Shown here piece after piece: positions 3,998 through 52,612 of a DNA stretch of 64,000 nucleotides. The stretch is taken from contig NZ_WPCU01000003.1 in the NCBI RefSeq assembly GCF_009742705.1, positions 261,262-325,261 on the forward strand. The letters run 5' to 3'. Each line of letters begins with the position of its first letter. The stretch's first letter is position 1. The translations under genes and the position numbers were made by a program. The notes below the pieces were generated by a model. That model was not told where the DNA came from, did no database searches, and saw only the letters and a program-made list of their open reading frames with translations. The stretch is from Auraticoccus cholistanensis (GTDB lineage: Bacteria; Actinomycetota; Actinomycetes; Propionibacteriales; Propionibacteriaceae).

Positions 3998-4618
3998 TCA
4001 GCCGAGCAGGGCCGGCGCGGTCATCGCCAGCATCCCGACCCCCATCACGGTGTGGCTGACGTCGAAGCCCCCCGGCCGGTGGTGCGGTGCCCGCGACGCC
4101 CGCGCGTGCACGGCCGCGCTGACCGACAGCGCTGTGCCGGCCAGCAGCAGCGCGACCAGGCCCAGCCCGGTCAGCTCGGGCACCAGGCCCAGCCGGGCCG
4201 CCGTGTGGTCGTGGGCCGACCCGCCCTCCGGCGGCTCCACCGCCAGCATCCAGACCATGGCCAGCGTCATCACGACGTGGAACCAGGGCAGCCACGCCAC
4301 CGAGGCGTCCTCCGTGGCGGACGTGGCGGCGTGCCCAGTCCTGCCCGGGGACCACAGGGGTTGGCCCGGGGACCACAGGGCCCGGCCCAGGAACCACAGG
4401 CTGGACAGCGCGAACAGCACCAGCTGGGGCCACACCGGCACCGAGGACCCGTGCGTCCAGGCCATCGTCAGCATGGCCAGGCTCATCAGCAGGTGCAGCC
4501 CGTGGTCGAGCCGCTCGGGCCAGCGGGAGGGCCGCAGCGTCTGCACGGCGAACCAGCCGCCGGTCAGCGCGAACAGCGCCGAGAGCAGCACCAGGGCCAG
4601 CGGGTCGGTGACCACCAC
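3998..4618 (-). CDS. DUF5134-family membrane protein
   Basis: A 206-residue protein with about six hydrophobic helices, matching the actinobacterial DUF5134 pattern (His-containing helices such as RLDHGLHLLMSLAML and a short histidine/acid-rich loop). Function is unknown; its position beside copper genes suggests a metal or envelope link. One loop contains a threefold heptad, LWFLGRA-LWSPGQP-LWSPGRT, encoded by three 16-nt matches exactly 21 nt apart (4343, 4364, 4385), apparently a local in-frame expansion. A GGAGG lies very close to the GTG at 4618, so GTG 4615 is an alternative start. Confidence 0.8.
   Translation of the reverse strand: MVVTDPLALVLLSALFALTGGWFAVQTLRPSRWPERLDHGLHLLMSLAMLTMAWTHGSSVPVWPQLVLFALSSLWFLGRALWSPGQPLWSPGRTGHAATSATEDASVAWLPWFHVVMTLAMVWMLAVEPPEGGSAHDHTAARLGLVPELTGLGLVALLLAGTALSVSAAVHARASRAPHHRPGGFDVSHTVMGVGMLAMTAPALLG
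4343..4400. repeat. three 21-nt tandem units inside the DUF5134 gene
   Basis: GCCCGGGGACCACAGG occurs at 4343-4358 and 4364-4379, with a two-mismatch copy at 4385-4400. The 21-nt period keeps frame and encodes heptads LWSPGxx in the DUF5134 protein. Confidence 0.85.
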
Positions 4619-51567: not shown

Positions 51568-52167
51568 TTGTACGAGGGTCCGGTCCAGGAGCTGATCGAC
51601 GAGCTGGGGCGGCTGCCCGGCGTCGGTCCCAAGAGCGCGCAGCGGATCGCCTTCCACCTGCTGTACGCCGGCTCGGAGGACGTCGAGAAGCTCGCCGAGG
51701 CGCTGCTGAAGGTGAAGCAGACCGTGCGCTTCTGCGAGGTCTGCCACAACGTCTCGGCCGAGGAGCGGTGCCGGATCTGCCGCGACCCGCGCCGCGACCG
51801 GACGTCCATCTGCGTGGTCGAGGAGTCCAAGGACGTGGTGGCGATCGAGCGCACCCGCGAGTTCCGCGGCACCTACCACGTGCTGGGCGGGGCGATCAGC
51901 CCCATCGACGGCATCGGCCCCGCCGACCTCACCATCCGCGAGCTGGTGATGCGGCTGGGTGACGGGACCGTCCAGGAGGTCATCGTGGCCACCGACCCCA
52001 ACCTGGAGGGCGAGGCCACCGCCACCTACCTGAGCCGGCTGCTGCTGCCGATGGGGGTCCGGGTGGCCCGGCTCGCCAGCGGCCTCCCGGTCGGCTCCGA
52101 CCTCGAGTACGCCGACGAGGTCACCCTCGGCCGCGCCTTCGAGGGCCGCCGCTACGTCGAGGCCTGA
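51568..52167 (+). CDS. recR: recombination protein RecR
   Basis: A 199-residue recombination mediator that works with RecO and RecF at gaps. The helix-hairpin-helix is [17 protein letters not shown], the zinc finger is [16 protein letters not shown], and the Toprim domain starts at [15 protein letters not shown]. The start codon is TTG 51568, one nucleotide after the ybaB stop; all known family sequence begins at this codon ([13 protein letters not shown]). The GGAGG in the end of ybaB serves as ribosome-binding site. Confidence 0.97.
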
Positions 52168-52218
52168 GCCCGCCGTCCCGCCCGCGCCCGCCCCAGCCTC
52201 AACCGCTGTCCGGGCACC

Positions 52219-52573
52219 TCCACAGCCCCTCCGGTCCCGTTTCACAGCCGTCCCGGTGCCGCTTCACAGCCGCACGTGGCCCTTCACAGCCGTTGCAGCT
52301 GCTGTGGAGCCGACGCACGGGCTGTGAAGCGCACGATGCCGCCCGCACGGAGCTGGGGACGTCCACGCCCGGGATCTGGCTCCGGCCACTCCGACGCCGC
52401 GCCTTCACAGCCGTCCGTGGTGCTCCACAGCCGTTCCAGCGGCCGTGAAGGGGACCTAGCGGCTGTGAAGGGGACCTAGCGGCTGTGAAGCGGCGCCGGA
52501 GCTGCTGTGAGGGGAGCGAGCGGCTGTGGAGCGGCGCCGGAGCGGCTGTGAAGGTGCCCCGAGGGCTGTGAAG
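52219..52573. repeat. array of about 15 short motifs (TTCACAGCCG) phased near 21 bp
   Basis: The 445-nt gap between recR and oleD holds no gene but about fifteen copies of a 10-11 bp motif. Forward copies (TTCACAGCCG or TCCACAGCC) start at 52219, 52241, 52263, 52283, 52404 and 52424. Reverse copies (CGGCTGTGAAG and variants) start at 52299, 52319, 52440, 52460, 52480, 52502, 52521, 52543 and 52563. Neighbours of the same orientation are 19-22 nt apart, about two helical turns. Two perfect 20-nt units GGGACCTAGCGGCTGTGAAG stand in tandem at 52451-52490. The spacing is not a multiple of three, so it is not a coding repeat. Confidence 0.9.
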
Positions 52574-52612
52574 GCGGATGGGTGGGACGGGTCCGGCGGG
52601 CGGAGGCGCGCG

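What the first reader, a model, noticed from the sequence alone, without database searches (positions are those of the whole stretch)
52168..52612. Phased array of about 15 inverted and direct TTCACAGCCG motifs downstream of recR
The gap between recR and oleD is filled with a 10-11 bp motif in six forward and nine reverse copies. Same-orientation neighbours are 19-22 nt apart, close to two DNA turns, so bound proteins would sit on one face of the helix. The order is forward block, reverse block, forward pair, long reverse block. Two perfect 20-nt tandem units show local expansion. It is not CRISPR-like and not coding. I saw no further copies elsewhere in the window. It could be a binding array for a chromosome-organising or regulatory protein, or a family of short dispersed repeats.
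Basis: seen in the sequence. Interest (0 to 1): 0.72.

Follow-up and report, generated by a model that had tools for sequence, protein, structure and literature searches.

The report
Species-specific phased repeat arrays between genes
The gap after the recR gene holds one of about 16 similar clusters of a 10-letter DNA word that this one bacterium carries between its genes, laid out with near-perfect mirror symmetry and two-helix-turn spacing, which suggests a protein landing pad of unknown purpose; its sister species has different mirror-symmetric repeats instead.

Summary
The array is one of 16 intergenic arrays in this genome. All share one architecture. In 23 of 23 dyad centres two copies face each other exactly 16 bp apart, usually around NTGCAN. 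The next copy outward lies 20 bp away in 44 of 45 arms, and the one after that 22 bp away in 13 of 17. The words are conserved between loci (87% identity) while spacers are not (44%; shuffled 32%). Opposing arms do not covary, and unpaired outer copies keep the word just as well. This points to a sequence-specific double-stranded DNA site for a protein rather than an RNA hairpin, terminator or CRISPR. Arrays avoid genes, mostly follow stop codons, and sit beside unrelated genes. The centre is absent from 197 other genomes of the family, the sister species included, and occurs in an 85,000-species collection only as five isolated hits. The sister has other dyad families, in the orthologous gap at two loci. 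Best reading: a lineage-specific, REP/BIME-like extragenic repeat family without a RAYT gene, built from cooperative protein-binding half-sites. Binder and function are not shown.

The parts
52168..52612 (.). Intergenic gap between recR and a convergent minus-strand gene, occupied by the array
52219..52228 (+). Forward copy, outermost on the left (TCCACAGCCC, 2 mismatches)
52241..52250 (+). Forward copy, outer extension, exact
52263..52328 (.). First 66-bp dyad core: + 52263, + 52283, centre TTGCAG, - 52299, - 52319 (spacings 20, 16, 20)
52293..52298 (.). Centre of first core (TTGCAG; NTGCAN class)
52404..52469 (.). Second 66-bp dyad core: + 52404, + 52424, centre TTCCAG, - 52440, - 52460 (spacings 20, 16, 20)
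52434..52439 (.). Centre of second core (TTCCAG; one of the centres that departs from TGCA)
52440..52489 (-). Tandem of nearly identical 20-nt units (CGGCTGTGAAGGGGACCTAG and a one-base variant), a sign of local expansion
   Evidence: family D1
52480..52572 (-). One-sided outer extension of the second core: reverse copies at 52480, 52502, 52521, 52543, 52563 (steps 20, 22, 19, 22, 20) with no forward partners

Best explanation
The array is one member of a species-specific family of extragenic repeats. It works like REP/BIME clusters in where it sits and how it is dispersed, but its unit is a non-palindromic half-site, YY-CACAGCCG (TT, CT or TC at the first two positions). Shown: 16 loci; a 66-bp dyad core with copies at +20, 16 across the axis, and +20; outer copies added in steps averaging about 21 bp; conserved words and diverged spacers; location between genes, usually just after a stop codon. 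Inferred: a sequence-specific DNA-binding protein recognises the half-sites. Two dimers would fill the dyad core, and further subunits would stack outward on the same helical face in 42-bp (20+22) steps. Arrays grow by tandem duplication, and the words are then kept by selection while spacers drift. Most likely consequence, also inferred: an architectural or insulating complex at gene ends (a DNA-bound roadblock, supercoil barrier or bridging site) rather than promoter control.
For: Genome-wide enrichment over control: 53 v 3, and 79 v 2 for spaced pairs. Centres: 16 exact, and 23 within 3 mismatches, v 5 control. Invariant geometry: 23/23 centres at 16, 44/45 first steps at 20, 13/17 second steps at 22. 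Between-locus identity is 0.87 for words, 0.44 for spacers and 0.32 for shuffled spacers. Left and right spacers pair no better than arms swapped between loci (78 v 89.7 of 200), and word variants do not covary even with G-U allowed. Forty unpartnered outer copies keep the word (identity 0.86, spacers 0.47). Position 1-2 variants are TT 70, TC 32, CT 31, CC 1. In the tandem contexts counted the array hugs the upstream stop codon; only two loci are divergent.
Against: No binding protein has been identified. A conserved actinobacterial regulator is unlikely, because the sister species has no copy of the word. Spacers retain some shared ancestry (0.44 v 0.32), so part of the sameness comes from copying, not selection. 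Sites were collected with a cut-off of 2 mismatches, which hides decayed outer copies. Steps of 14, 24 and 25 occur. Phase compensation beyond the second step is only suggestive (P = 0.057). No strain-level, expression or binding data exist.
Confidence: 0.55

Rival explanations
1. RNA-level element: the dyad cores act as stable 3'-end hairpins (terminators without a U-tract, or mRNA stabilisers) at gene ends.
For: The cores fold very stably (mean z -6.3; about -34 to -62 kcal/mol), and most arrays follow stop codons or lie between convergent genes.
Against: No covariation in words or spacers. Forty copies without a partner keep the word. The same word recurs at all loci, which a hairpin does not need. 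Two arrays lie between divergent genes. No T-run terminator was found, and no Rfam family reached its gathering score at the arrays.
Confidence: 0.2
2. Selfish or neutral dispersed repeats (a REP/MITE-like family spread by an unknown enzyme, then expanded by tandem duplication) with no host function. The enzyme's own recognition of the word keeps the words uniform.
For: Species-restricted. Spacers share residual ancestry; some loci share spacers at 70-75%. Tandem duplications of about 20, 126 and 154 bp occur inside arrays. The same genome has another repeat family with long inverted ends and one copy that holds a nuclease-like gene.
Against: Old copies with random-looking spacers keep the words intact, which passive copies should not. 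No Y1/RAYT transposase is in the genome. No target-site duplication was seen by eye in the aligned flanks.
Confidence: 0.2
3. Binding sites of a known conserved actinobacterial factor such as MtrA (mycobacterial box: direct repeats of GTCACAgcg) or DnaA.
For: TTCACAGCCG/CTCACAGCCG resembles GTCACAgcg (PMC4285127), and some variants contain TCCACA.
Against: The word occurs 0 times in the sister species, where such factors would be expected to be conserved (not tested). MtrA sites in Streptomyces are half-sites 5-6 nt apart (PMC13189361), not 20-22 bp steps with a dyad. Flanking genes are not an MtrA or DnaA regulon.
Confidence: 0.05

Closest known systems
REP elements, REP dimers (REPINs) and BIMEs (GTAG- and CGTC-tagged families, PMC3733652)
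   Same: Extragenic, species-restricted, in both orientations and in clusters; next to the 3' end of the upstream gene or between convergent genes; some REP superfamilies (CGTC) also have no known transposase.
   Different: A REP unit is itself a 20-40 bp palindrome with a GTAG or CGTC tag. Here the unit is a non-palindromic 10-mer, no RAYT is present, a fixed 66-bp dyad core recurs, and outer copies are phased at about 21 bp. Actinobacteria are not mentioned in that survey's main text.
Centromere-like or iteron arrays (ParR/parC, plasmid iterons)
   Same: Direct repeats about two helical turns apart for cooperative protein binding (from general knowledge).
   Different: Here 16 chromosomal loci, two-sided around a dyad, no partition or replication gene recognised next to the arrays examined, and no match in plasmid or phage records at the sensitivity used.
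MtrA boxes of mycobacteria
   Same: Direct repeats of a similar word, GTCACAgcg (PMC4285127).
   Different: Different spacing, dyad organisation and location; not conserved in the sister species.
Intrinsic terminators
   Same: GC-rich dyads at gene ends.
   Different: No T-tract, no covariation, and unpartnered copies are conserved.

Membership tests
REP/BIME (GTAG- or CGTC-tagged) | Unit is itself a 20-40 bp stem-loop | tested here: not met
   The 10-bp unit is not self-complementary; only two facing units form a dyad
REP/BIME (GTAG- or CGTC-tagged) | GTAG or CGTC tag at one end of the unit | tested here: not met
   The frequency table of 136 sites shows no conserved GTAG or CGTC
REP/BIME (GTAG- or CGTC-tagged) | RAYT (Y1 transposase) in the genome (GTAG type) | tested here: not met
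   PF01797: no match in G000 or G001; found in 5 of 14 control genomes
REP/BIME (GTAG- or CGTC-tagged) | Extragenic, mostly after a stop codon or between convergent genes | tested here: met
   No array lies inside a conserved gene; tandem-context arrays are nearer the upstream stop (8/8, sign test 0.004); divergent 2 of 14 v about 40% of intergenic length (P = 0.04)
REP/BIME (GTAG- or CGTC-tagged) | Dispersed, species-restricted, both orientations, clustered | tested here: met
CRISPR array | Identical direct repeats with unique spacers of uniform length | tested here: not met
   10-bp unit, two orientations, mostly 9-14 bp spacers
Intrinsic terminator or structured RNA | Stem maintained by compensatory changes; U-tract or Rfam match | tested here: not met
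MtrA box | Direct repeats of GTCACAgcg bound by MtrA | not testable with these tools
   Word is similar, spacing differs; binding cannot be tested here

The most novel reading that the evidence does not exclude
The arrays are platforms for an uncharacterised, fast-evolving DNA-binding protein that assembles at gene ends by nucleating on a four-half-site dyad and spreading in 42-bp steps. Related bacteria use the same kind of layout with entirely different recognition words: the sister species has 57-58 bp and 62 bp dyad families, and another genus of the family has 19-bp phased arrays. The recognition code would turn over between sister species while the architectural job stays.
Probability: 0.25. 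Interest if true: 0.8.

Novelty: new variant of a known kind. Interest (0 to 1): 0.58.

Why it matters
Extragenic repeats are usually treated as hairpins or as debris of mobile elements. Here the geometry (16, 20 and 22 bp) is kept almost without exception at 16 loci while spacers drift, which is what a cooperative protein complex would demand. If the binder is found, this would be a chromosome-wide architectural or insulating system whose recognition word is private to one species. With the differing families in the sister species it would offer a direct test of how such systems change their code.

Tried and rejected
RNA hairpin or terminator: rejected as the main reading (no covariation, unpartnered copies conserved, no T-run). 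RAYT mobilisation: no Y1 transposase. Plasmid, phage and viral origin: no match. Regulon of one transcription factor: flanking genes are unrelated (recR, purA, transaldolase, arginine deiminase, DNA polymerase IV and others, named by reading the translations, not by a family search). Ori or ter clustering: orthologues of the flanks are spread over the sister's chromosome. Co-occupied gaps as proof of a shared function: two orthologous gaps hold sister-species dyad families (recR gap; Nudix-dinB gap), but the number of sister loci is not fully known, so this is only suggestive. A search for G005-type arrays across relatives used a badly built pattern and returned nothing even for G005, so it is uninformative. 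Extra CACAGCC pairs at C5:624010, C5:738964 and C17:643045 were checked as possible partners of a nuclease gene and were not.

Full report
What is there. The gap 52168-52612 lies between recR (51568-52167, plus strand) and a convergent minus-strand gene. The sites form two symmetric cores, 52263-52328 and 52404-52469, with outer copies to the left of the first and to the right of the second.

It is one of 16 arrays. In the window's genome (G000, 3.80 Mb, 17 contigs) the exact word occurs 53 times against 3 for its reversed control. Facing centres CACAGCCG-NTGCAN-CGGCTGTG occur 16 times exactly. Spaced direct pairs occur 79 times against 2. They fall into 16 intergenic loci on contigs C5, C6, C7, C8, C9 and C17. 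A few isolated words (for example C5:68516 and C9:592264) are not in arrays. Contig C6 ends inside an array.

Architecture. Over 136 sites and 23 dyad centres: facing copies are always 16 bp apart (23/23); the next copy outward is 20 bp away in 44 of 45 arms (21 in the other); the one after that is 22 bp away in 13 of 17, so that the cumulative distance is 42 bp, four turns at 10.5 bp per turn; third copies cluster at 61-64 bp. The smallest arrays are exactly the four-site, 66-bp core (L054, L059, L120, L121). Outer copies are often on one side only. The word is C-[TT/CT/TC]-CACAGCCG; CC in the first two positions was seen once in 136 sites.

Constraint. Between loci the words are 87% identical and the spacers 44%; shuffled spacers are 32%. 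So the modules share some ancestry, but the words have been kept while the spacers drifted. The two spacers of a core do not complement each other more than spacers swapped between loci (78 v 89.7 of 200), and variants of facing words do not covary, with or without G-U pairs, on either strand. Forty outer copies that have no partner on the other side keep the word as well as the partnered ones. The cores would fold into stable RNA hairpins (mean z -6.3), but that follows from the symmetry alone. This pattern is what a double-stranded DNA site for a protein would show. A caveat: sites were collected with at most two mismatches, which favours conserved copies; the core copies are less affected, since 45 of 46 arms have their second copy at the expected place (within 1 bp) and the remaining arm is cut by a contig end.

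Context. No array lies inside a conserved gene. In the tandem contexts (gene calls by a simple codon-usage script) the array lies closer to the upstream stop codon (18-62 bp) than to the downstream start; four loci are convergent, two divergent (L055, L059), and one (L122) is unclear. For L053 the predicted reading frame runs through the array, but comparison with the sister gene suggests that the true end lies about 26 bp before it, after a frameshift. The flanking genes are unrelated household genes (translations). Orthologues of the flanks are scattered over the sister's chromosome, so there is no ori or ter cluster.

Distribution. None of 56 relatives shows comparable enrichment, and the sister species G001 (recR 94-95% identical) has no copy of the exact word. 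The centre, with up to one mismatch, is found in 1 of 198 genomes of the family, the window's own. An exact scan of 85,000 species found five isolated centres, none in an array. Viral contigs, plasmids and phages gave nothing.

Sister species. G001 has its own dyad families. One is CGAGTGCGGCC..GATCGTCG, a 16-18 bp centre, then CGACGATC..GGCCGCACTCG; 19 modules were read, one of them (L083) weak, and the arms do not covary (286 v 288.6). Another is a 62-bp dyad bounded by GGCGASTCGCC. The first lies in the recR gap of the sister, where the gene on the far side differs; the second lies in the orthologous Nudix-dinB gap. A genus further away (G005) has 19-bp phased arrays of CGCCTGCCGGTT in both orientations in 3 places of a 400-kb sample, and G004 has hairpins of CTCCCAACACGCCGTC. 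Lineage-specific extragenic dyads may thus be common in this family of bacteria; this was sampled, not surveyed.

Comparison with known kinds. Location and dispersal match REP/BIME elements (PMC3733652), but unit palindromy, the GTAG/CGTC tag and the RAYT gene were tested and not met, so I do not file it as a REP. It works like REP clusters in position, and like a cooperative binding platform in anatomy.

Organism. Not named by the tools. Genome sizes and kinship groups suggest a high-GC actinobacterium of the Propionibacteriales; this is inference.

Judgement. The feature is real and highly ordered. That it is a protein-binding platform is likely, not shown; the binder and the function are unknown.

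Noticed in passing
G001 (sister), L125-L133 and L080; e.g. L080 4372-4680: A different dyad family (57-58 bp; outer CGAGTGCG, inner GTCG) in at least 9 loci, six of nine contexts convergent, one of them the gap after recR.
   Followed up: partly
G001, L089 18347-18700, L090 16800-17200, L144 3580-3900: A further 62-bp dyad family bounded by GGCGASTCGCC; 19 exact pairs in G001, none in G000; present in the gap orthologous to a G000 array.
   Followed up: partly
G000, e.g. L206 2015-3110, L207, L208, L209; about 20 or more copies: A roughly 220-250 bp element with long inverted ends (TGTATGTCGTCGCGGTC), also in G001 in fewer copies. One 1.08-kb copy (C9:517016-518096) holds a gene with a weak DUF559/MTES_1575 nuclease match; possibly a MITE family with a gene-bearing copy.
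   Followed up: partly
G005, L146 5280-5656, L155 1650-1976, L160 14914-15056: 19-bp phased arrays of CGCCTGCCGGTT in both orientations with recurring inverted spacings (30 and 52).
   Followed up: partly
G004, L167, L171, L183: Six copies of a REPIN-like hairpin CTCCCAACACGCCGTC...GACGGCGTGTTGGGAG in a 400-kb sample.
   Followed up: no
G000 C6:124640-124924 (L051): The contig ends inside a TTCACAGCCG array with a 126-bp tandem duplication; the array probably broke the assembly.
   Followed up: no
L053 near 4384-4475: Apparent frameshift at the 3' end of the gene before the array, compared with its sister-species orthologue.
   Followed up: no
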